From assembly GCA_016784965.1 (NCBI GenBank), contig JADHTQ010000001.1, positions 124,001 to 188,000 of the forward strand: a stretch of DNA of 64,000 nucleotides. The letters run 5' to 3'. The notes under the pieces were generated by a model, which did no database searches, had not been told where the DNA came from, and saw only the letters and a program-made list of their open reading frames with translations. Below, piece by piece: positions 18,995 through 39,591 of the stretch. Source of the DNA: Bacteriovoracaceae bacterium (GTDB lineage Bacteria; Bdellovibrionota; Bacteriovoracia; Bacteriovoracales; Bacteriovoracaceae). The position numbers and the translations under genes were made by a program. The stretch's first letter is position 1. Every line of letters begins with the position of its first letter.

Positions 18995-20269
18995 TTAAAA
19001 TGTAAACAATTTTTTAAGTTTCTGTTCGAGTACTTCATATGAAAAGTGCTGTTTACCCAATTTGTAATTATATTCGGCAATCTCTTTTTGTAGTTTTTTG
19101 TTATGGATAACTTTATCTATTTGAGTTAGCGATTTATCAGTTAATACATTGTCTTCTAACATAACCGCTTTAAAACCCTTGCTCCCAATATCGGGCCAGT
19201 AAACAGGTTTGTAATTATTTACAAAAATTGGTTTTTTGGCCAAAATACATTCAACAAATGCATTTCCAAAGCCCTCATATGTACTAAAATACGTACATGC
19301 TGTTGCGTTGGCATAGGCATCAGACAATGAGTAAATTTTCTTTCCATGATATGATTTTCCTCTTTCACTGAGAATAATATGCCCTCCAAATATCACCTGT
19401 TTTCTCATTTTTCTTTTTTTAATATGATCTATTAGTTCTTTATAGTAGCCCTTTCTTTCATCATCTGCTGCAGTTCCTGTAATAATAAGCTTCAGCCTTT
19501 TATCATCCAAGCGATGAATCATCTCAATTGCTGTCTCTATACCCTTTCTCTTTACAATTCTGGTAATTTGAAAAATTGGAATATCATTTTTACCAACACC
19601 AAGTCGTTCCAATAGGTCTTTGTTATAATCATTTTTTCTAGCATAGGGCTTTGAAAAATCCATAACGTTTGGAACAATTGTTGATTTGATCCCCAGTTTC
19701 TTCTTTAAAATTTTCTTTGAATATTCGTTGATAACTGCATGTTTAACATTTGGAAGATTTAGAGGAAATGTCTCCTTGATAATATTATCAATTTCTTTAT
19801 GTGGAGTTTTATACCTATCTCCTCTTTCCCAGTGAAAATCATGGTCATGAGTTACTACGGGAATTTTGATAATTTCTACTGCCTTTTTTATCCCCATACC
19901 CATGGAAAGATGGCACGGTAGGGCCGATGCGTTTTCTGATAGTAGGGCATCAATTTTGTTTCGCGAGATCCAATAAAAAATCTCTTTGGCTATATGATCA
20001 GAAGTTTGCTCTAAATGGGCAATTAAATTTCTTGGATTTTCCTTGGGGAAAAAGAAGGCCCTATTTTGTTCCCACTCACAGTTGGGAGAAAAAAATGACA
20101 GATGTGTTAACAGAGTTCGATATTTTTCTGGTATTATGTTGTTTTTAAAACTACCTGCCATTATATACACTTTATGACCCATCTTAACTAAAATTTTTAT
20201 CCATTTTTCTGTCTCTAGGGCCACACCATCAACGTCACCGATTCGCCCGATAATAATACCAATATTCAT
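18995..20269 (-). CDS. GT4-type glycosyltransferase
   Basis: 424 residues in a GT-B fold. The N-terminal Rossmann half starts MNIGIIIGRIGDVDGVALETEKW; PVVTHDHDFHWERGDRY and PNVMDF mark the domain junction. The C-terminal half has FQITRIVKRKGIETAIEMI, LIITGTAADD, and the donor-site FSTYEGFGNAFVECILAKKP (E-x7-E of retaining GT4 enzymes). Its first four bases overlap the end of the TIR gene, so it is translationally coupled to it. Donor and acceptor unknown. No other polysaccharide gene is adjacent, which sets it apart from usual glycan clusters and links it to the TIR/RyR operon. Confidence 0.88.
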   Translation of the reverse strand: MNIGIIIGRIGDVDGVALETEKWIKILVKMGHKVYIMAGSFKNNIIPEKYRTLLTHLSFFSPNCEWEQNRAFFFPKENPRNLIAHLEQTSDHIAKEIFYWISRNKIDALLSENASALPCHLSMGMGIKKAVEIIKIPVVTHDHDFHWERGDRYKTPHKEIDNIIKETFPLNLPNVKHAVINEYSKKILKKKLGIKSTIVPNVMDFSKPYARKNDYNKDLLERLGVGKNDIPIFQITRIVKRKGIETAIEMIHRLDDKRLKLIITGTAADDERKGYYKELIDHIKKRKMRKQVIFGGHIILSERGKSYHGKKIYSLSDAYANATACTYFSTYEGFGNAFVECILAKKPIFVNNYKPVYWPDIGSKGFKAVMLEDNVLTDKSLTQIDKVIHNKKLQKEIAEYNYKLGKQHFSYEVLEQKLKKLFTF

Positions 20270-21822
20270 AACGATCCTCCGTAATACTTTTTGAAACTTT
20301 CCAATATAGCTTCTTCCAGCTTAATAATAATATCTAAGTTTATGTTATTAACTGATGAGTAAATATCTGACTTTGCAAAACCTATTTCCAATACTACTTC
20401 GGGAATTGGGGTCAACTTAATTTTTTCAAAATTCTTTTTTTCACTAAAGATTTCTTTAACGTCTTTGCTTAGTTGTCGTTCCAAAAGCCACACCATTTTT
20501 TGAGCTCTTTGACCAGAGTAGCTTATTTTATAATATGGCACTGAAGATCTTTCAACTTTAACCTTAAAAAGAATGGTCGCACCCATTTGCTTTGCCCTAT
20601 TTAAGCGGTCTTGTTGTAAAATAGGCTCATTTAAAGATGTTATTAACTTTAATGATGGACGATGATAACCTTTTAACAACCCTCGCTCCAACATAAGTAG
20701 TAGCTCAAACGCCAAAAGGTCTACCTTGGTTCCTCCTGAGCTATATATAATATCAAATAGAAAAAAATCTCTTAACTTAATATTTCTAGCATTATTGCGA
20801 TTTTTTTTAAATAGACGATAGTTTAGGACTGAATCTATTTTTGAAAGTTGATTATATTCAGGGAAAGTTATCTGCTTCTTATTCATTGCATTTAATAGCT
20901 TTTCTCGCTCTTCATAATAGGTCATAGCACGATTGGTTTTATTAAACAGTAGTCCACTACGTAGTAAAATATTTTCTTTCAACTTTTCTAATTCATAAAG
21001 TGAATTATTTGCTAAATTGCCACCATATGTTGTCGAAGTCATCTGTGGCGGAAGTGCTACTCTGGGTTTAGCCAAAGGTTTAATTACTGGTTTTGGAATA
21101 ATTTTGGCCACTGGTTTTGGAGTAATTTTGGCCACTGGTTTTGCCGGCTTGCTTTCAACATGTTTGACAGCTATGACAGCCGGCTCATCACTCACATTCG
21201 ATGTAAAAAAAGTATATCCCGCCACAATTACAACACATAATATGACAAATACTGCAGCAGCAATGCCATACTTAAGTTGTTTAGACCTAAAAGTTTTAGA
21301 GAATGTTTTTGCTTTCTTTTTGTTTTTGGCCTCAAGTTTTTTAAGCTCTAATTTACTTAATTTAAATGGACGAATTATCGTATTATCACTCACGTCATCT
21401 GAGGATTTGGTTTCTGCTTTTTGTTGTAATACTGTCTTTGCAATGGAAATTAATTCCTGTATATGGTCTTCTAAATTACCAGAATAGGCATTAAGCCAAT
21501 GTGTATTGCATAGATAATACTCCATGGCAGCAGATGGAATAGTTTCATCTATCCTAAATGGTATAATTGTAATCCTGGCATTAACCGCCCGATCAATTTC
21601 TTTTTGTACTTGAACTGATTTATTCGAATTAGCAGAAAAAATAAGTAGCATTAACTTTGAATGGTTTATAGCATCGAGTAGAGATTTAGCGTAGATCTCT
21701 CCTGGTACTATGTCCCGAGGTGCGATCCAACATTTCAAACCTGCACTTTCAAGTTCATTGCATACCTTTTGGGCAAGGCTTACTTCTGCCGATGAATGGC
21801 TGATGAACACAAGATGTTTCAT
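20266..21822 (-). CDS. TIR domain membrane protein with long C-terminal domain
   Basis: 518 residues. A TIR domain (1-130) has VFISHSSAE, CWIAPRDIVPGE, LMLLIFSANSNKS and QVQKEIDRAV; E75 aligns with the catalytic Glu of NAD-cleaving TIR domains. One membrane helix (about 186-206) follows, then a Pro/Lys/Val-rich repeat (220-260) built from tandem PKPVAKI units, and a C-terminal domain of about 250 residues that should lie outside the inner membrane and has no family I recognise. It sits between the RyR/cyclase-like gene (10 bases upstream) and the glycosyltransferase gene (4-base overlap). A role in immunity or signalling is inference. Confidence 0.85.
   Translation of the reverse strand: MKHLVFISHSSAEVSLAQKVCNELESAGLKCWIAPRDIVPGEIYAKSLLDAINHSKLMLLIFSANSNKSVQVQKEIDRAVNARITIIPFRIDETIPSAAMEYYLCNTHWLNAYSGNLEDHIQELISIAKTVLQQKAETKSSDDVSDNTIIRPFKLSKLELKKLEAKNKKKAKTFSKTFRSKQLKYGIAAAVFVILCVVIVAGYTFFTSNVSDEPAVIAVKHVESKPAKPVAKITPKPVAKIIPKPVIKPLAKPRVALPPQMTSTTYGGNLANNSLYELEKLKENILLRSGLLFNKTNRAMTYYEEREKLLNAMNKKQITFPEYNQLSKIDSVLNYRLFKKNRNNARNIKLRDFFLFDIIYSSGGTKVDLLAFELLLMLERGLLKGYHRPSLKLITSLNEPILQQDRLNRAKQMGATILFKVKVERSSVPYYKISYSGQRAQKMVWLLERQLSKDVKEIFSEKKNFEKIKLTPIPEVVLEIGFAKSDIYSSVNNINLDIIIKLEEAILESFKKYYGGSL
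21087..21144. repeat. 24-base tandem repeat, about 2.4 copies, within the TIR gene
   Basis: Units 21087-21110 and 21111-21134 differ at one or two bases and a third partial copy follows. They encode the Pro-Lys-Pro-Val-Ala-Lys linker just after the membrane helix, so they form a spacer of adjustable length. Confidence 0.8.
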
Positions 21823-21832
21823 GGTATCTTAA

Positions 21833-23743
21833 CTATGTCCTCCTCAAGCAATACATAGGAAATGAACCAAATTTTTTAGCAAGAGATATTTTTCCAACAT
21901 AATCACAGCGAAAGGAGTTTATATCCATTAACACTGATAATGCTGCAAATTCTCTTCCGACAAAGATTTCTCCTGGAGGCGTAATAGGCTCAATCCTTGC
22001 TGCTGTACAAATGTTGCTACCGCTGTAGCTGGTTCTCCCTGTTAGTTTATTGGTTGTTTTTATAACCGGCCCGGCATGCAATGCTATTCGTAGTTTCATC
22101 GGGATGTGAAGTCCTAGATCACTCCAATTTATATTGTTGATCCGCTCAGAAAGTGATAGTGCAAAAAGCCCTGCATCTTCAATTTTATGAAACACTAAAA
22201 ATAAAGCATCCCCCCAAGTATTTTTTGATGCAAGCTCTAGATTAAATTCATCTAATAACTCTATTACAACACTCGACAATTTATCTTCAAAAACAACAAT
22301 CTCATTATCCTTGAGCTTGGCATAGTTTGATGCATCAGCAAACAAAATGGCCTTAAGATCATAATTGGCCGTTACCGATTGTTTTAAGGAGTCACATGAC
22401 CACTCTTTGTTCTTTGTGACGATAGATACATCATTATTATCGATTTTAAAAATAACTAGCTCAGTATCTAACTGCTGGGACTTTATAGTAGCAATCCCAT
22501 AATTGACAAATTTATAGTATTCATAATCAACATCAAAATTTGATGATTCCATTGTTTTAATCGCTACCACTTGAGAAAAATCTTTTAAGTTACTTTCAAA
22601 ATCATCTATAAGACTTTTCTCATTATTGAAATTCAGATAACAAATGAGATCTCTATCCATTTTATCAAGTACTTTACCCAAGCGTTTAAATATCTTGGCA
22701 TCAACCTTATCCTTGGATAGTTTACCTTCAAAAATTACAACTACTGGTACTTTAATACTATCAAGTAATTTTGCTTTATCTTTACCTGAAATTTTCGAGA
22801 TTTTAAGTATTTGTTTTAAATTACTAACTGTAGTCGCCAAGTCACCAATGCGCTTGCCCGAGTTGCAAAAAGCTTGATGGTACCAATTTATTGCATCTTC
22901 AAACTGATTCATGACCAAAGATGCCTCTCCCATTGTGGCGTAAGTCCAATATAAATTATCCTTTGTTTCACCTTTTAAGGACTCTTCACATTTTTTAAAA
23001 ACTTGGCCAGCAACTTCAAATGATGCTTTTTTTTCACCAAGATGAATTAGTGTCCAAGCAACGTTAATACCTGTCCAAGTTCCTCTTTTTTTCTCGTAGG
23101 CCATGAGATAATATTTGTGAGCTTTCTTGAGATGCTCATCGCTTGGGTTGCTACTATTTTGTGACTTCTTCCAGAGTTCTTTGTGGGTTTTGGCCAGTAA
23201 GCCAAGTGTCCTTTCGCTATCGTCACCTAATTCAAATAAAGACGTAAGATAATCATTTGCCCTCTCGGTCATTCCTAGTCGGGTTAGTGCCATGGCCTTT
23301 AATTGTCGGGGACGGGTAGCCTCGGGAAAATTGCGACTGATTTCATCAAATAAATCATGGGCCATAAGTGGCTTTCCAGTTCGCAACAATTCTTCTCCGG
23401 TAGCCAGAAATTCATCAAACTTTTTATAGCTTCTTATATCATGACCTTTACTATCACTTTTTGGAGGAGTTATGTCATACCCTAATGCTTTTATTAACCT
23501 GATGGCACCCATAGCACTCATACGATCATATTCTTGTTCGTCATTTGATAGTTGTTCATATGGCACCAGGCAAGGATGCTTTTTCTTAGGGTCATCACGT
23601 TTGCTGCCAAAAGACCATCCTTCACTCATACGATTTATGGACCAAATTTCATGGGTATTTTTGGCGAGCAATTCTGTTAACTCTTCTAAGTAATATTCAA
23701 GTTGAATATTTGAAACATCGATTGGTTTTGGTTTGTAGGACAT
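21833..23743 (-). CDS. RyR domain - TPR - nucleotide-cyclase-like multidomain protein
   Basis: 636 residues, no signal or membrane helix. An RyR domain (about 4-92) has HEIWSINRMSEGWSFG, LVPYEQLSNDEQEYDR and IKALGYDI. A TPR-like helical region runs 105-310. A degenerate alpha/beta domain (about 330-450, starting VPVVVIFEGKL) follows. A class III cyclase-like domain (464-630) keeps both metal Asp (D470, D512) and the transition-state Arg (R583), but S572 replaces the base-reading Asp and C579 the transition-state Asn. It may have an altered product or be a binding domain. RyR domains in bacteria are predicted nucleotide sensors in conflict systems (established predictions). First gene of an operon with TIR and glycosyltransferase genes. 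Confidence 0.82.
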   Translation of the reverse strand: MSYKPKPIDVSNIQLEYYLEELTELLAKNTHEIWSINRMSEGWSFGSKRDDPKKKHPCLVPYEQLSNDEQEYDRMSAMGAIRLIKALGYDITPPKSDSKGHDIRSYKKFDEFLATGEELLRTGKPLMAHDLFDEISRNFPEATRPRQLKAMALTRLGMTERANDYLTSLFELGDDSERTLGLLAKTHKELWKKSQNSSNPSDEHLKKAHKYYLMAYEKKRGTWTGINVAWTLIHLGEKKASFEVAGQVFKKCEESLKGETKDNLYWTYATMGEASLVMNQFEDAINWYHQAFCNSGKRIGDLATTVSNLKQILKISKISGKDKAKLLDSIKVPVVVIFEGKLSKDKVDAKIFKRLGKVLDKMDRDLICYLNFNNEKSLIDDFESNLKDFSQVVAIKTMESSNFDVDYEYYKFVNYGIATIKSQQLDTELVIFKIDNNDVSIVTKNKEWSCDSLKQSVTANYDLKAILFADASNYAKLKDNEIVVFEDKLSSVVIELLDEFNLELASKNTWGDALFLVFHKIEDAGLFALSLSERINNINWSDLGLHIPMKLRIALHAGPVIKTTNKLTGRTSYSGSNICTAARIEPITPPGEIFVGREFAALSVLMDINSFRCDYVGKISLAKKFGSFPMYCLRRT

Positions 23744-23886
23744 ATTATCATAATAACCATACTAAGAAAAAAATCAAAAAAATCTTAAATTGCAGTAATT
23801 TGAGCACCTTTTTCCTATCTGATAATTTTGCCCCATGATACCATTGTATGAAGAAAATGTTTGGCACTTAAGTGGAGTAAATACAT
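23744..23886. promoter_or_regulatory. Divergent promoter region of the RyR/TIR/GT and channel/vWA operons
   Basis: A 143-base AT-rich gap separates two start codons facing away from each other. Rightward, TTGAGC and GATAAT lie 15 bases apart near 23797-23823; leftward, a TATTAT-like element is next to the RyR start. GTGGAG precedes the channel gene ATG. The shared gap makes joint control of the two operons plausible. Confidence 0.4.
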
Positions 23887-24633
23887 ATGTCAAGAGCAGG
23901 AAATATTCTCAGATCATTTATGCTTGCTACTTTTATAGTTGGGGTAAGCTACATCGGTCTCACTGCAACCGGCACCTCAGAGACCATGGCCTTTTTAAGA
24001 AGAATTTGTATTCTTCTTGGTGGAAATATTACTGGTGGTGGCTACATTCAATTTTTTACATATTTTGCTTTTTTTTGGTCACTATTTGATATTTTAAGTA
24101 AACTCGAAAAAATTAGAAAAGAGCAAAGGGCGTTCAAGTATAAGCTCTTACCAACTGATGAAAGACATGTACTTATGCCTAAAGACTTAATGCAGATCAA
24201 ACTAAAAATTGATGAATATGAAAAAAAGGGAAATTATCTACTAAATGCCGTAATTAAAAAGGCATGTATTAAATTTCGTACTTCAAATTCCATTTCTGAG
24301 ATAATTAATATCATTAATATTCAAACAGACATTAATAAAGAAAAATCTGAAAGTGGACAATCAAATATTCGTTATCTCACCTGGGCTATCCCTTCCATCG
24401 GATTTATTGGTACAGTGCTGGGCATTTCACAAGCGCTACAAGTGGCAAACAGTGGTGACATGAATAAAATAACAGCTACACTTGGTGTGGCATTTGACAC
24501 CACCTTAGTTGCTCTGTGCTTGAGTATTATTGTAATGTGGTTTTTTCATAGGCTACAAGAAGAAACTGATACACTACACGCAAAAATTAAAGAATATGTC
24601 ATTGAACATTTAGTTAATAGAATTGAAGTTTAA
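23887..24633 (+). CDS. MotA/TolQ/ExbB-family proton channel protein
   Basis: 248 residues. Two N-terminal membrane helices (about 10-28 and 50-70), a cytoplasmic loop of about 100 residues, then the diagnostic C-terminal helix pair: YLTWAIPSIGFIGTVLGISQAL and TLGVAFDTTLVALCLSIIVMWFF, equivalent to TolQ/ExbB helices with the GTV-GI and Thr-Thr pore positions. Such proteins form pentamers around a dimeric MotB/ExbD/TolR-like stem and convert ion flow into rotation. The partner is the vWA gene seven bases downstream. Divergent from the RyR/TIR operon. Confidence 0.85.
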   Translation: MSRAGNILRSFMLATFIVGVSYIGLTATGTSETMAFLRRICILLGGNITGGGYIQFFTYFAFFWSLFDILSKLEKIRKEQRAFKYKLLPTDERHVLMPKDLMQIKLKIDEYEKKGNYLLNAVIKKACIKFRTSNSISEIINIINIQTDINKEKSESGQSNIRYLTWAIPSIGFIGTVLGISQALQVANSGDMNKITATLGVAFDTTLVALCLSIIVMWFFHRLQEETDTLHAKIKEYVIEHLVNRIEV

Positions 24634-24639
24634 AAATAG

Positions 24640-25572
24640 ATGTCGAAGATAAAAAGAGAAAGTAATGTATTCAGTATCGCGTTTTTAGACCTGCTATCAG
24701 GTGCCCTTGGAGCTGTTATAATTTTATATATTGCTGTACCCAAGGCATCGATTAAAACAGAACACTCAGACAAAAGCAAAATAGAAATCATCATAAAAGA
24801 AAAAAAAGAGGTCACCAGGCAATTAAATAAATGTAGAAGTAAAAATACGACCTATGAAGAACTTGTGAAAAAAAACCATGATGATTCCGAAAAACAAATT
24901 ACAGCACTAAAAGAGAAAATTTCAGCACTAAAAAAAGAAAAAATTAAAACACCTCCCCCTCCTCCACCTCCTCCTCCAAAGATTAGAAAGAAAGCAAAAG
25001 ACAGTGGGTTTGCTGCCCAACCACTGGATGTGGGATTTCAGTTTAAGGGCAAAAAGATTGTTTTTGTAATTGATGTATCAGGTAGTATGATGCAAGAAGA
25101 TCGCATCGGACAAGTTAAAGCTGGTCTTAAAATGCTCATTACCTCCATGTCAAAAGAATTTATGGTTAATGTCGTTTCATTTCCAAATCGCAATAAGACT
25201 CCTTTTAAAAATCTGTGGCATGCCCCTAGATTTACGACCGCTGATAACAAAAAAGAGGTCTATAAGTTTTTAAATGGTCTATCAGCTTATGGAACAACTC
25301 CAACACGAGAAGCTCTAAAACATGTCTTTGAAAAGTACTCCGATATTACAGACATCGTTTTGCTATCTGATGGCGCACCGACCACTTTTAATTCGCAAAA
25401 GCGCGATGACATCTATAAACTTCTAAGCGATTTAGCAAGCCAAAATGTGTTTGATATTCAGGTCAATACAATTGGAGTCGGTTCCGATTTTTTAAAAGAT
25501 ATAAATAATTTGAAATACATTTTCCTATCAAAGCTAGCAGCAGACCATAATGGCTTTTTTGTAGGTTTTTGA
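24640..25572 (+). CDS. MotB/ExbD-like stem protein carrying a von Willebrand A domain
   Basis: 310 residues. A single N-terminal helix, FLDLLSGALGAVIILYI (15-31), has an Asp (D17) at the position of the ion-carrying Asp of MotB/ExbD. A coiled-coil stretch (50-103), a run of nine prolines (105-113), then a vWA domain (about 135-305) with the MIDAS motif DVSGS (145-149) and a later TTPTRE Thr and LLSDGAP Asp, so the metal site looks complete. A peptidoglycan-binding OmpA or ExbD domain is absent; the vWA domain takes its place. Function is unknown. The gene is coupled to the channel gene. Confidence 0.85.
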   Translation: MSKIKRESNVFSIAFLDLLSGALGAVIILYIAVPKASIKTEHSDKSKIEIIIKEKKEVTRQLNKCRSKNTTYEELVKKNHDDSEKQITALKEKISALKKEKIKTPPPPPPPPPKIRKKAKDSGFAAQPLDVGFQFKGKKIVFVIDVSGSMMQEDRIGQVKAGLKMLITSMSKEFMVNVVSFPNRNKTPFKNLWHAPRFTTADNKKEVYKFLNGLSAYGTTPTREALKHVFEKYSDITDIVLLSDGAPTTFNSQKRDDIYKLLSDLASQNVFDIQVNTIGVGSDFLKDINNLKYIFLSKLAADHNGFFVGF

Positions 25573-27732: not shown

Positions 27733-28278
27733 ATGAAACTACTTATAGCTAGTGTTACACTGCTTGTCTCTTTTTTTTGTTTTAGTCAGCAAAGAGGTCA
27801 AGATAGTGAACGTCAAATGCCTCGCAATGGCTTAAGGCAGAACAATAGTAACAGGCAAAATCAACAAAGAGCTTTTAGAGGTAGAGGTCAAAGAAGACAG
27901 CAGAGAGATTTTAGAAGAGGGGGGCAACAACCAAGACGGGGGTTTGACGAAAGCAGAGGACAAGCTAATCGGAAAAACCCCGAAACGATGCAACTTATGA
28001 AAGAGGTTCGGGAGTTAGAAAATAAATCTAAACAACTGGCCCAAAATTACAAAGATAGTAACTCTATTGAAGATAAGAAAAAAATTTCTGAGTCACTTCG
28101 GAGCAATTTACAAGAAATATTTGAAAAAAAATTGAGCTTTGGTGAAAAAAAGCTAGATGATGTAGCCAAAAAGCTAGAGCAACTAAAAGATTCCCTAGCT
28201 AGTAGAAAAAAGAATGCTCAGCAAATAATTAAGCAACGTTTGGACGAATTACTTACAAGTGACGGCTATGCACAGTAA
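27733..28278 (+). CDS. Secreted Arg/Gln-rich protein with C-terminal coiled coil
   Basis: 181 residues. Signal peptide (MKLLIASVTLLVSFFCFS), then about 70 residues of low complexity dominated by Arg, Gln, Gly and Asn (GRGQRRQQRDFRRGGQQ), then a helical, coiled-coil-prone region (90-175). A highly basic exported segment could bind nucleic acid or anionic polymers such as lipopolysaccharide; this is inference. Its end overlaps the start of the adenylate cyclase gene, so translation is coupled. Confidence 0.65.
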   Translation: MKLLIASVTLLVSFFCFSQQRGQDSERQMPRNGLRQNNSNRQNQQRAFRGRGQRRQQRDFRRGGQQPRRGFDESRGQANRKNPETMQLMKEVRELENKSKQLAQNYKDSNSIEDKKKISESLRSNLQEIFEKKLSFGEKKLDDVAKKLEQLKDSLASRKKNAQQIIKQRLDELLTSDGYAQ

Positions 28279-29128
28279 AACTTTAACAATACTATTTGCT
28301 GATATTCAAGGTTATACAAAAAGAACATCGAGGCAAAGCAGAGAGCAAAATCAAAATTTCATAACTGAAATCAACGATTTTATCAAAAAGTATACAAAAG
28401 AATTTTCAGGCATATTCGTAAAAAATTTGGGAGATGGATTTCTTCTCACCTTCGAATCACCAACAAATGCAGTAAATTGTGGCAAGAGAATCCAAAAAGA
28501 AATTAAAACTAGAAATGCGAATATTTTAAAAAAAGAAAATTATGTACAGTTTAGAATTGGAATAAGTACTGGTGAAGTTAGTCTTGATGAAAATGGAGAT
28601 GTCTTTGGTGATGCAGTCAACATCGCATCAAGAATAGAAACTTTTGCTGAACCCAATGAAGTATTTATTTCAGAAAGTACTTATTTGGCCATGAACAAAG
28701 TTGAGGTGTACACCCAAGATTTGGGACCTCAGCAGTTCAAAAATGTTCTAACAGAGGTACGGGTATATAAAGTCCTCACTGAGCATGAACAAAGCAGCAA
28801 TGGAAAAATGCAAGAAAAGATTAAAGCAAAAGGGTTGCATGTTCTACTGCTAGTCTTTTTTTCCTTGATTGTAATTGGAGCACCTATCTCATTTTATTAC
28901 TTTTTTAAATCTAAACCTCAGTCAAAAGCAGATCCTGTGCACAAATGGAATTCGAAAATATTCAGGCAAATTCTTCAGCTTGAGCGAAAACTTGACCGAT
29001 TTAAAGAAGCCGAACGACATCTGTTTGGTCCAAGAAATGTACAATTATCCTGGGATGATTCGCTTTGGGAAAAATCTACAAGGCAAATAGAAAATGACAT
29101 TCGCGTGTTGGAGTCAATTCTAGAATAG
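28268..29128 (+). CDS. Membrane-tethered class III adenylate cyclase
   Basis: 286 residues from ATG 28268 (a GTG three codons earlier is possible). N-terminal class III cyclase domain (5-170): metal Asp D12 (FADIQGY) and D56 (KNLGDGF), base-reading K52 and D111 (GDVFGD), transition-state N118 and R122 (NIASR). The Lys/Asp pair points to ATP rather than GTP. One membrane helix (about 190-212) follows and about 70 residues with coiled-coil character lie beyond it, probably periplasmic. This is reversed from the common sensor-then-cyclase order. A stand-alone cyclic-nucleotide-binding protein is encoded at 35586-36059. Confidence 0.88.
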   Translation: MHSKTLTILFADIQGYTKRTSRQSREQNQNFITEINDFIKKYTKEFSGIFVKNLGDGFLLTFESPTNAVNCGKRIQKEIKTRNANILKKENYVQFRIGISTGEVSLDENGDVFGDAVNIASRIETFAEPNEVFISESTYLAMNKVEVYTQDLGPQQFKNVLTEVRVYKVLTEHEQSSNGKMQEKIKAKGLHVLLLVFFSLIVIGAPISFYYFFKSKPQSKADPVHKWNSKIFRQILQLERKLDRFKEAERHLFGPRNVQLSWDDSLWEKSTRQIENDIRVLESILE

Positions 29129-35585: not shown

Positions 35586-36059
35586 TTAGGCTGCCTCTTT
35601 ATATTTTTGAAGCTTATCACTCAAATCAGAGATGACTTGATTGGAGTTTTTTAGGCGTTTTGTAATAAGTCTTGTCACATTTAAGACCATCAGAGAAAAA
35701 ACATCGGGGTTTTTTTTATAAAAAGAATAGAAGTTTGCATATGTCATCACTAATATATCGGTATTTTTAACCGCAATTATATTTGCAGTCCTCTTGGTTT
35801 CATTAATTAAGACCAACTCTCCAAAGAAATCTCCCTTAGAAATTGTCGTGATGATTTGCGATGTTCCGGACTTATCAATTGTAATATTTGCAAGACCTGA
35901 AAGCACAACACAAATCTCGGTTCCTGTATCACCTTGTTTGATGATATAATCACCTGGCTTATATGAAGCTACATGACATGACTTAATAATTTCACTAATC
36001 TCGTCGTCATATAGTTCATAAAATAGTGGGCAGCCTTTAACAAGGTCAGTAGCAGGCAT
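35586..36059 (-). CDS. Stand-alone cyclic-nucleotide-binding domain protein
   Basis: 157 residues: one CRP-type cNMP-binding domain with nothing else. The phosphate-binding cassette is GDFFGELVLINETKRTAN, keeping the ribose-binding Glu and the phosphate-binding Arg, and YKPGDYIIKQGD with IVVLSGLANI-like strands completes the barrel. No DNA-binding or kinase domain, so the output must come through a partner. It is the last gene of a three-gene unit, five bases after the MotA-like gene. A role in gating that motor by cAMP or cGMP is inference. Confidence 0.88.
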   Translation of the reverse strand: MPATDLVKGCPLFYELYDDEISEIIKSCHVASYKPGDYIIKQGDTGTEICVVLSGLANITIDKSGTSQIITTISKGDFFGELVLINETKRTANIIAVKNTDILVMTYANFYSFYKKNPDVFSLMVLNVTRLITKRLKNSNQVISDLSDKLQKYKEAA

Positions 36060-36064
36060 AAGTT

Positions 36065-36994
36065 TTAAGCTCCCTTGGCCTTTTTCACCGAAGATTCATT
36101 AATTTTCTTAGTAGACAAAGTTCTAATCTTTTTTACTTCTTTTAATAAAACTGGCAGAATATCATTGATTCTTCTTTCCATGCTTTGCTCGCCATGAATA
36201 GATAACCATAGTAATTCAAAGCAATTAGATACCATCTTAAATGTTTTCTTTCGAAGCCCATTTACAGGTGCTAGAGTGTTTAAAAAAGTCATAATAAGTG
36301 AAAATAAAATACCAGCAATAGATGTTTTCATTGCATAGGTTACACTCATTACAAATTTTGTTAATAGTCCTCCTGCAGAATCTAGATTTTGAAAGTCCAT
36401 CTGGGCAATAGCCGGCAATGCCATACTGATGCCAATAAAGGTTCCAAAAATTCCCATAACAACAAAAACAGTTGGCAATACATCAATAAGCCTTGATATT
36501 GGACCAATGGGGAAAACACCCATTAATTTAGTCCACTCTTCATCACGCTCCAGTATCCTATTTGTGAGGTTTGTATAGTTGGGTGGAAACTTACTCTTAA
36601 AAGCCCCCATTTCTGACTTTATGGAATTTAGAAAACTCTTATCTCCTTTTACGTAATCTCGTAGGGTAACTATATTGTTTGTTCCCATAACACTTGATAA
36701 TTTTTTCATTTTTTTCGAAGTACCCCTACGCACATGTCTGGTAGGTAGTTTATCCAAGACCTGCTCAAGTATGTCCGACATAAAGCCTTCCACATCCTCA
36801 ACATCTACCTCTGAATTTTTATTTCCATCGACAGATAAAATTTTCTCCAGCTCAGTGGTAAAGGAAGCAAAGTATGCATCTACCTTTTTGCTTGAGCGAT
36901 ATGAGGCAAATCTAAAAACAAGTCCTACTACTAACAAAACACTCATAATCTCAATAAGGTAGCTAGAACAAATAGTAAATACTAAGTCAATCAC
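36065..36994 (-). CDS. MotA/TolQ/ExbB-family motor protein
   Basis: 309 residues, GTG start with GGAG six bases before. One N-terminal helix (about 10-30), a soluble region of some 140 residues, then the paired helices VLPTVFVVMGIFGTFIGISMAL and TYAMKTSIAGILFSLIMTFL typical of MotA/TolQ/ExbB (Gly-Thr-hydrophobic-Gly and Lys-Thr-Ser positions), and a C-terminal cytoplasmic tail. Its partner, the MotB-like gene, lies three bases upstream. Similar in pairing to ZorA of Zorya, but without the long tail of ZorA. Confidence 0.87.
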   Translation of the reverse strand: MIDLVFTICSSYLIEIMSVLLVVGLVFRFASYRSSKKVDAYFASFTTELEKILSVDGNKNSEVDVEDVEGFMSDILEQVLDKLPTRHVRRGTSKKMKKLSSVMGTNNIVTLRDYVKGDKSFLNSIKSEMGAFKSKFPPNYTNLTNRILERDEEWTKLMGVFPIGPISRLIDVLPTVFVVMGIFGTFIGISMALPAIAQMDFQNLDSAGGLLTKFVMSVTYAMKTSIAGILFSLIMTFLNTLAPVNGLRKKTFKMVSNCFELLWLSIHGEQSMERRINDILPVLLKEVKKIRTLSTKKINESSVKKAKGA

Positions 36995-36997
36995 GGT

Positions 36998-39331
36998 TTA
37001 CTCCTTTTGGAGAACATCTAATTGTTTTAAAACATCAGGATTATCTTTTAAAGTAAAACTAATTTCAACACGTCTGGATAGCTTACAATCGAAATTCCCA
37101 CAGTAAAAGGTATCACTCTCTTTAAATACTTCAGAAGCAGGTGTACGATCAATAGGTCTTGAGAAACTTTTACCTATAGCTGAGACCTTTTTTCTTAGTT
37201 CAGTTCTGTGTGGAAAATGACCAAAGTTTTCTGCAAATATATATTTTACAATTGAGTTGGCCCTTCTCATGCTTAAATCAAGATTGTAGTTGTAAGCATC
37301 TTGGTGATTTTTATCAAATGGATCAACATACTTGCCTTGGTGTCTAGGACTTGCGTGCCCAATAATGTTAATATTGGTAATCTGATCCCGGATACCTTGA
37401 TCTTTTAAAAGTTCATTGGCATATAGTGGAATCAGCTCTTTAAGGCCGACTTTTGCAAACTTTGTAAGTTTGGCACTATCTCTATCAAATAAAAAGGCAT
37501 CGTCCATTTGTAAAATCACATTCCCAGTTACTGGATCTACTTTCGCTTTTAAATTTGCCTTCTCTAGTGCCTTAGCAATTCTACTTCCTATTTGAGACCT
37601 TAAGTTTGCTTTAACACTTGCAATCCCTCTAGTAACATCACCTAAGTATTTTTCAATCTTTTTATTTTTACTCTTTAGCTTTTTGCTATCTTTTTTACAG
37701 GCATTGAATTTTTTAACGATTACATTGTTACGCTTCACTAGAGTTTTATTTTTGCCTTTAAGATCACCCAAGATACTCGCTAGCTTATTTTTACTTTTAA
37801 TTTTACCTCTAAGGTCCATTTGCTCTTTTTGTAATCCAGCAATGAAACCTTCTTTACCTTCAATTTTATCTTTCAATGTTGCCATAGCATCTTTTAGATC
37901 TTTATTGTTCCTATTTAAGTAGGAAAGTTCACTGTTTAACCCATTGATTTTATTGGCCAAATCATTTTTCTTATCTGACATAGATGCAATTGTTGATTTA
38001 TATCCTTTTAAGCGATCTTTTAACCCCTTCATTCTGCCGCTTAAGTTTTTAACCTTTGCGTTTAGATTATCCTTCTCATTTGAAAGTGATCCAACTTTTG
38101 TTTCTAGACCCTGTACTTTTTCCATAAGTGCAGTTTTTTCATTTTTAGCATTACGAATATCATTTTTGAATCTCCCAATCTTACCTGTAAGTTTGGCATG
38201 ATCCATTTGTGATTTACTCAACCTCTCTTTTAACCCATCGCTAGAATCTTTAAAACGTTTGATCTCCTCTGTCTGCTTGGCAATAACATTAAGTAGAGAT
38301 TCGCTCTTTCTTTCTATGTCTTTGTTTTTTGCTACATGATCACTTATGGTTTTTTGTAGTTTTTCGATCACAGTCTGTTTTTGCCGTTTTGCATTTTCAA
38401 CATCTTTAATCTGTGTTTTTACTTTTAAAAAATCCTCATCGCGTCTAGCAACTTTTTTTGCAAATTCTTCTTGTTGACTTTTCAACTTATTTTGATGCTC
38501 AACAACTTTATTTCTGTGATCCTCATTTGTCCTTTTAAGTTTTTCTTCCAGCGCCTTAGTCTTTATAGTGAGAGCATTTTTAATTTGTGAAATTTTATTA
38601 AGTGTCTTTATTTTTTGCTCAACCTCTTCAACTTTCGCAGCAAGAGCATCTGTTACTTTTTTAAGCTCCAAGTTTTTTAACTCTTCAAGCTCTTTTATCT
38701 TCTCTTGATTCAACTTTTTTAACTTATTCAAAGCAATAGAGTTTGCCGTGATAGTTTTTAAATGTTCTCTATTTGCATTTTTTGTAGCAAGCTCTTTTGC
38801 TGCAATTGTTTGTTTATAAATCTCCTCTAACCTCTTGGCTTTTGCATTTTTCTCAATTTCTAATTGCTCATGAACTTGTTTAATATCCTCAATCTCTAAT
38901 TCTTTGGTGGCAATAGTGTGTTCATGTTCCTTGTTCTTTTGTTTTAATATAGCAAGCTGTGCTTCCTTTACCCCTTGATCTTTTAAAATATGGTGGATGT
39001 TATTTTTCTGATTATGTAGTTTTTCTGAAAGTGATTTTAAATCTTCCAACTTTGATGTAATAGTCTCGCTAACTTTTTCAATTTCATTTATGGATTTTTT
39101 TAACTTCTTTTTTACCAATTCATTTTTCTTGACTACCTTTTTTGGAGTTTGCCCTACGAGCATTTTCTTCTGCTCTTCTACTCTTTTTACAGAAGAGGCC
39201 ATTTTAACGCCTGACTGCAACAGAGCAAAGATAAACATCACAAGAAATATAATGGCCATCGTAGTGAACATATCACTGTACGAAGTCCATACACTCCCAC
39301 TGTCTTTTGGTTCATCACTATCATCATTCAT
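36998..39331 (-). CDS. MotB/OmpA-like stator protein with very long coiled coil
   Basis: 777 residues from ATG 39331, with TGGTGA upstream. The N terminus WTSYSDMFTTMAIIFLVMF aligns with MotB around its ion-binding Asp; here D20. After the helix (18-42) comes about 550 residues of nearly unbroken Lys/Glu/Leu-rich coiled coil (about 70-620), then an OmpA-like peptidoglycan-binding domain (about 640-760) with NIIGHASPR, LDLSMRRANSIV and the SRRVEI end. Both anchoring and ion-carrying features are intact. MotB proteins normally have only about 60 residues between helix and OmpA domain. First gene of the unit with the MotA-like and cNMP-binding genes. Confidence 0.87.
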   Translation of the reverse strand: MNDDSDEPKDSGSVWTSYSDMFTTMAIIFLVMFIFALLQSGVKMASSVKRVEEQKKMLVGQTPKKVVKKNELVKKKLKKSINEIEKVSETITSKLEDLKSLSEKLHNQKNNIHHILKDQGVKEAQLAILKQKNKEHEHTIATKELEIEDIKQVHEQLEIEKNAKAKRLEEIYKQTIAAKELATKNANREHLKTITANSIALNKLKKLNQEKIKELEELKNLELKKVTDALAAKVEEVEQKIKTLNKISQIKNALTIKTKALEEKLKRTNEDHRNKVVEHQNKLKSQQEEFAKKVARRDEDFLKVKTQIKDVENAKRQKQTVIEKLQKTISDHVAKNKDIERKSESLLNVIAKQTEEIKRFKDSSDGLKERLSKSQMDHAKLTGKIGRFKNDIRNAKNEKTALMEKVQGLETKVGSLSNEKDNLNAKVKNLSGRMKGLKDRLKGYKSTIASMSDKKNDLANKINGLNSELSYLNRNNKDLKDAMATLKDKIEGKEGFIAGLQKEQMDLRGKIKSKNKLASILGDLKGKNKTLVKRNNVIVKKFNACKKDSKKLKSKNKKIEKYLGDVTRGIASVKANLRSQIGSRIAKALEKANLKAKVDPVTGNVILQMDDAFLFDRDSAKLTKFAKVGLKELIPLYANELLKDQGIRDQITNINIIGHASPRHQGKYVDPFDKNHQDAYNYNLDLSMRRANSIVKYIFAENFGHFPHRTELRKKVSAIGKSFSRPIDRTPASEVFKESDTFYCGNFDCKLSRRVEISFTLKDNPDVLKQLDVLQKE

Positions 39332-39591
39332 AAATTCACCACGTAAGTTATAAAAATATCCACACCTAACTGCCAAGCTTTTCGTCATACAAACTATAAA
39401 ATTTAGTTAATAGTTAAAAAAAATGTCCGACTATAGTATTTCTAAACACTTGCGTGACACGTTGCGTCACCAACGCCTTTAATATCTTAAAAATTTAATG
39501 GCCAACAAAGGACGGTACTCAGGCCAATAAAAGATCCATCTCCAATCTGGCCCGAACTGAACAACTGCAACTGCAACCGTTCCCGTTTCTG

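What the first reader, a model, noticed from the sequence alone, without database searches (positions are those of the whole stretch)
18995..25572. Divergent RyR-cyclase/TIR/glycosyltransferase operon and channel/vWA operon: candidate new conflict or signalling system
A RyR-TPR-cyclase-like protein, a TIR-transmembrane protein and a GT4 enzyme are translationally coupled (10-base gap, 4-base overlap) and face a MotA/ExbB-like plus vWA pair across one 143-base promoter region. TIR, RyR and cyclase domains are each known from nucleotide-based immune systems, and ion channels are known effectors. A possible logic is: RyR/cyclase senses or makes a nucleotide, TIR consumes NAD or carries the signal to the envelope, and the channel changes membrane state.
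Basis: partly seen in the sequence, partly recalled or inferred. Interest (0 to 1): 0.82.

Follow-up and report, generated by a model that had tools for sequence, protein, structure and literature searches.

The report
TIR plus RyR-receptor nucleotide cyclase module
Two neighbouring bacterial genes, one for a membrane-anchored TIR enzyme and one for a nucleotide cyclase with a ryanodine-receptor-type domain, recur together across several bacterial phyla and probably form a signal relay in which an NAD-derived messenger switches on a second messenger; the other three genes named in the finding are chance neighbours.

Summary
The five genes are present as described, but they are not one system. 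A two-gene core is conserved: RyR-TPR-S-(Rossmannoid)-class III cyclase plus a TIR protein. In the window's family, 8 of 9 genomes with the cyclase have the TIR gene directly downstream, almost touching or overlapping. Across 80 loci in Bdellovibrionota, Cyanobacteria, Syntrophobacterales, Poribacteria and others, TIR genes make up 26/210 genes within two places of the cyclase and 2/360 further away. The ExbB-like/vWA pair is its own conserved operon (30/30 loci checked) and lies near the cyclase only here. The GT4 gene is rare and unlinked elsewhere. The RyR domain carries H31/W34/H56/D73 at the exact spacing of the cADPR-binding residues of phage RyDEP (2026 preprint). All 27 TIRs keep the catalytic Glu; cyclase metal Asp residues are near-invariant. 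Best reading: a Thoeris-like relay in which TIR makes an ADP-ribose-type signal, the RyR (or a SLOG-like domain) receives it, and the cyclase emits a second messenger. The direction of signalling, the products and any anti-phage role are untested. New variant of a known kind.

The parts
21833..23743 (-). RyR - TPR-S - (degenerate Rossmannoid) - class III nucleotide cyclase protein, 636 aa
   Evidence: relatives; AlphaFold model of the relative L093
23468..23737 (-). RyR domain (residues 3-92), with H31, W34, H56, D73 at the spacing of RyDEP H75/W78/H100/D117
   Evidence: Pfam PF02026 E 3.4e-32; solved RyR structures; residues; RyDEP paper PMC13232231
23057..23362 (-). TPR-S domain (residues 128-229), within an ASK1-like helical region
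   Evidence: PF20308 E 3e-17; the same region of L093 matches ASK1 5ulm, Z 22.0
22424..22750 (-). Degenerate remnant of the SLOG-like Rossmannoid domain (residues 332-440); the GH and GADILF motifs kept by most relatives are gone here
   Evidence: Alignments
21848..22351 (-). Class III nucleotide cyclase domain (residues 465-632); metal Asp 470 and 512, Arg 583
   Evidence: PF00211; A6 alignment; cyclase Z about 20-22 for the relative's model
20266..21822 (-). TIR - one TM - predicted extracytoplasmic C-terminal domain, 518 aa
21484..21810 (-). TIR domain (residues 5-113), catalytic Glu75 at 21598-21600
   Evidence: PF13676 E 2.4e-20; Glu kept in all 27 aligned TIRs
21196..21273 (-). Single transmembrane segment of the TIR protein (about residues 184-209)
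   Evidence: Sequence; helical in the model
18995..20269 (-). GT4 glycosyltransferase, MggS-like; overlaps the TIR gene by 4 bases in this genome only; probably not part of the module
   Evidence: NF041101 220 bits against a 640-bit cut-off; 5 of 129 family genomes, unlinked to the cyclase elsewhere
23887..25572 (+). ExbB/MotA-like plus vWA operon: separate conserved pair, not part of the module

Best explanation
Two-gene nucleotide-signalling module. The TIR protein (in this family anchored in the inner membrane with a fast-evolving outside domain; elsewhere carrying TPR or WD40 repeats) detects a trigger and converts NAD+ into an ADP-ribose-type signal. The partner receives that signal in its RyR domain (most relatives also or instead keep a SLOG-like domain), passes it through an ASK1-like TPR-S region, and turns on its class III cyclase, giving a cyclic-nucleotide second messenger. 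It would be a Thoeris-like relay with a cyclase in place of an NADase or membrane effector. Shown here: the pairing, the domains, the conserved catalytic and ligand residues, the co-divergence. Inferred: the chemistry, direction of flow, trigger and output.
For: The TIR gene directly follows the cyclase in 8 of 9 family genomes, gaps -4 to +21. TIR genes are 26/210 near against 2/360 far across the 80 loci (Fisher p 3e-10), in more than one gene order. TIR and cyclase distances correlate in 15 dereplicated pairs, rho 0.47, p 0.0014. Catalytic Glu is kept in all 27 aligned TIRs. RyR ligand residues H-W-H-D are kept in nearly all RyR-bearing relatives and sit at RyDEP spacing. Cyclase Asp and NTWGD motif are invariant or nearly so. 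The TIR partners carry sensor-type modules (TM/outside domain, TPR, WD40) while the cyclase protein carries the ligand-binding domains, which points from TIR to cyclase. AlphaFold model of L093: pLDDT 92, pTM 0.82; residues 108-406 match the ASK1 central regulatory region, Z 22.0.
Against: No biochemistry. In the RyDEP paper two of eight tested phage RyR homologues did not form a stable complex with cADPR signals and none of the eight cleaved them, unlike the founding member, so the residues alone do not prove binding or cleavage. The SLOG assignment is only suggestive (hhalign against DprA E 0.004, against ThsA STALD 0.11). In the window copy that domain is degenerate. Many non-RyR relatives (sphingomonads) lack an adjacent TIR. 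The correlation of distances can partly reflect shared vertical descent.
Confidence: 0.42

Rival explanations
1. Pycsar-like order: the cyclase is the sensor and makes a cyclic nucleotide that activates the TIR as NAD-depleting effector; the RyR domain binds or destroys ADP-ribose products as a feedback or off switch.
For: Pycsar pairs a class III cyclase with TIR or TM effectors (own knowledge). The purine-specifying Lys position of canonical adenylyl cyclases appears to be Asn in the NTWGD motif (read against the canonical motif from memory), so an unusual substrate is possible. A RyR domain can act as a glycosidase (PMC13232231).
Against: No cNMP-binding domain was reported in the window TIR protein or in the L030 and L106 partners; the window cyclase has no PADLOC hit, PycC included. 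The diverse sensor-like fusions sit on the TIR side.
Confidence: 0.22
2. Non-immune envelope or stress signalling: the pair is a chromosomal signal-transduction module, for example reporting wall or membrane state, with no role against phages.
For: Located among what look like housekeeping genes in the family; no full match on the plasmid and phage records searched; membrane-anchored TIR with an outside domain in this family.
Against: Patchy distribution (9 of 129 family genomes at strong score), scattered over phyla, and TIR/RyR/TPR-S domains typical of conflict systems. It shares most of the mechanism with the best explanation and differs only in purpose.
Confidence: 0.26
3. A single five-gene conflict system, including GT4, channel and vWA.
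For: 4-base overlap of TIR and GT4 and the shared 143-base divergent region in this genome.
Against: No co-occurrence elsewhere: ExbB/vWA is an independent operon, 30/30 loci, on other contigs than the cyclase in G020, G033, G110, G111; GT4 in 5 of 129 genomes, unlinked.
Confidence: 0.04

Closest known systems
Thoeris (TIR ThsB plus SIR2-SLOG ThsA, or macro-domain ThsA)
   Same: Two genes: a TIR protein predicted to make an ADP-ribose-type signal and a partner bearing ligand-binding domains (SLOG-like).
   Different: The output domain is a class III cyclase, not an NADase or membrane effector; the receptor is RyR plus TPR-S; no SIR2 in the window or L030/L093 protein.
Pycsar (PycC class III cyclase plus PycTIR or PycTM)
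   Same: A class III cyclase gene beside a TIR gene.
   Different: No PADLOC PycC hit for the cyclase; no cNMP-binding domain seen in the TIR protein; the cyclase is fused to RyR, TPR-S and a Rossmannoid domain.
RyDEP (phage RyR-domain proteins, PMC13232231)
   Same: RyR (R12) fold with the His-Trp-His-Asp ligand residues at identical spacing.
   Different: Phage counter-defence; here the domain is fused to a chromosomal cyclase next to a TIR.
ASK1/MAP3K5 central regulatory region
   Same: The TPR-S helical region of a close relative superposes, Z 22.0, 254 residues, 3.0 A.
   Different: ASK1 carries a kinase; here a cyclase. The evolutionary link between TPR-S and ASK kinases has been proposed before (own memory of Burroughs and Aravind; paper not held).

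Membership tests
Thoeris | TIR protein with catalytic Glu encoded beside the receptor gene | tested here: met
Thoeris | ThsA-type partner (SIR2-SLOG or macro-TM) | tested here: not met
   Pfam of the window cyclase protein and of L030 shows no SIR2 or macro domain; the SLOG-like domain is only suggestive
Thoeris | TIR product is 2'cADPR, 3'cADPR or a related signal that activates the partner | not testable with these tools
   Needs biochemistry
Pycsar | PycC-type cyclase | tested here: not met
   No PADLOC family at E 0.1 for the window cyclase; PycC models hit two other window ORFs, probably including the separate cyclase at 28259-29128
Pycsar | Effector with a cyclic-nucleotide-binding domain | tested here: not met
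   No PF00027 in the TIR protein or in the L030 and L106 partners; the outside domain of the window protein has no confident model
RyR (PF02026) domain family | RyR fold and ligand residues H, W, H, D | tested here: met
   E 3.4e-32; spacing 0/+3/+25/+42 as in RyDEP
Class III nucleotide cyclase | Two metal Asp and transition-state Arg on a class III fold | tested here: met
   the transition-state Asn position is not conserved (Cys in the window copy)
SLOG superfamily (middle domain of relatives) | Profile or fold match to DprA/LOG/ThsA SLOG | tested here: inconclusive
   hhalign against DprA E 0.0039, STALD 0.11, controls 0.03-0.5; domain not folded alone
Zorya-like (for the ExbB/vWA pair) | ZorA plus MotB/OmpA-type ZorB | tested here: not met
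   Weak ZorA2 hit; the partner is vWA with no OmpA domain

The most novel reading that the evidence does not exclude
A two-tier second-messenger relay: an ADP-ribose-type signal from a TIR is received by a RyR domain, the bacterial counterpart of the ryanodine receptor repeat, and converted into a cyclic-nucleotide signal, through a TPR-S scaffold shared with animal ASK kinases.
Probability: 0.3. Interest if true: 0.85.

Novelty: new variant of a known kind. Interest (0 to 1): 0.62.

Why it matters
It gives a concrete cellular candidate for what RyR domains do in bacteria, just after phage RyR domains were shown to bind and cleave TIR-made signals. If the relay is real, one nucleotide signal is used to produce another, which neither Thoeris nor Pycsar does as far as I know, and it would bear on the old question of whether ryanodine-receptor repeats respond to cADPR-type ligands.

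Tried and rejected
Five-gene system: rejected on co-occurrence. Degenerate Amidase_3 reading of the TIR protein's outside domain, suggested by eye: no Pfam support even at E 10 and a low-confidence model, so not claimed. SLOG by PDB profile search: no meaningful hit; hhalign gave only a suggestive DprA match. SLOG did not appear in the VIA list, but cyclase and TPR matches fill it, so this is no evidence against. RyR and SLOG as strict alternatives: mostly true, but L120 lacks intact copies of both and L171 has no RyR and a changed GH motif. Papers: Burroughs and Aravind 2015 and 2020 are not held; text searches for RyR with TIR or SLOG found only the RyDEP preprint as relevant. Full-length module on plasmid or phage records: not found.

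Full report
Observation. The window lies in G000:C49; relatives of its cyclase carry the titles Bacteriovoracaceae and Bdellovibrionales.

What belongs together. The cyclase protein has strong relatives in eight other genomes of the same family (129 searched). In seven of those eight, and in the window, a TIR gene lies immediately downstream. Its distance is -4 to +21 bases in those relatives and +10 in the window. The exception is L029. None of these loci has a GT4, ExbB or vWA homologue of the window beside it. The ExbB-like and vWA genes are found together in 30 of 30 loci examined, and only the window's own locus has the cyclase next to them. In G020, G033, G110 and G111 they lie on other contigs than the cyclase. 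The GT4 occurs in 5 of 129 genomes with unrelated neighbours. So the unit is the cyclase-TIR pair.

Breadth. A scan of genome contigs found 111 relatives, 80 kept, including Cyanobacteria, Syntrophobacterales, Poribacteria, Verrucomicrobia, Chloroflexi and sphingomonads. With a TIR profile made from the family, TIR genes are 26 of 210 genes within two places of the cyclase and 2 of 360 further away (Fisher p 3e-10). Pfam on neighbours agrees: TIR_2 in 13 of 47 near the RyR-bearing group and 9 of 56 near the rest. Gene order varies (downstream, upstream, opposite strand). TIR and cyclase distances correlate (24 pairs rho 0.50; 15 dereplicated rho 0.47, p 0.0014), which fits co-inheritance, though vertical descent contributes.

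Anatomy. The AlphaFold model of the complete relative L093 is confident (pLDDT 92, pTM 0.82): helical RyR, TPR region, an alpha/beta domain at 367-550, a class III cyclase at about 570-750. The cyclase matches solved cyclases at Z about 20-22, and residues 108-406 match the ASK1 central regulatory region at Z 22.0. The alpha/beta domain carries GH and GADILF motifs and resembles DprA weakly (E 0.004), so it is called SLOG-like, not SLOG. In the window protein this domain is degenerate, leaving RyR as the only intact candidate receptor. The TIR protein has a confident TIR domain, one membrane helix and a C-terminal domain (outside the cell membrane if the positive-inside rule holds) that is low-confidence and poorly conserved. 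Partners elsewhere are TIR-TPR or TIR-WD40.

Catalytic and ligand residues. The TIR Glu (E75 here) is present in all 27 aligned TIRs. The cyclase keeps both metal Asp and, nearly always, the Arg, but the usual transition-state Asn is variable and the usual purine-specifying Lys position reads Asn, a comparison made from memory of the canonical motif; substrate is open. The RyR domain has H31, W34, H56 and D73. [quoted passage not shown] RyDEP's sequence was not aligned here; the match rests on spacing. Six of eight tested phage homologues bound the signals and none of the eight cleaved them, only the founder did, so binding is likely and cleavage uncertain.

How it may work. Sensor-type modules are on the TIR side and ligand-binding domains on the cyclase side, so the simplest flow is TIR signal to RyR (or SLOG-like) receptor to cyclase. 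The reverse, Pycsar-like flow is the main rival; against it, no cNMP-binding domain was seen in the window TIR protein or in the L030 and L106 partners and the window cyclase has no PycC hit. Whether the module defends against phages is unknown: family loci sit among what look like housekeeping genes, and no plasmid or phage record searched holds the full protein.

Known versus new. TPR-S and its link to ASK kinases, and SLOG/TIR conflict systems, are known (partly from memory; those papers were not held). The pairing of a RyR receptor-cyclase with TIR, read in the light of RyDEP, is to my knowledge a new variant.

Noticed in passing
window 35586-39388 (-): cNMP_binding protein (PF00027 E 9e-22) next to a 309-aa protein that looks MotA/ExbB-like by eye (no Pfam hit) and a 796-aa OmpA protein with weak MotB_plug; a ZorB1 model hits one window ORF at 7e-37, probably this one.
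   Followed up: partly
window 28259-29128 (+): Separate class III cyclase (PF00211 E 3e-20) 2.7 kb from the vWA gene.
   Followed up: partly
window 23887-25572 (+): ExbB-like plus vWA pair: an independent operon, both genes together in 30 of 30 loci checked; vWA homologues at strong score in roughly 55 of 129 family genomes. The vWA protein has an N-terminal membrane segment where ExbD/MotB would sit.
   Followed up: partly
family f1 genomes: DprA (PF02481) was not found in any of 19 genomes of this family searched but in all 11 from other families of the phylum.
   Followed up: no
window 18995-20269 (-): GT4 related to mannosylglucosylglycerate synthase (220 bits, cut-off 640); a neighbouring protein with a match to the same GT4 sits beside its homologue in L175 and L177.
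   Followed up: no
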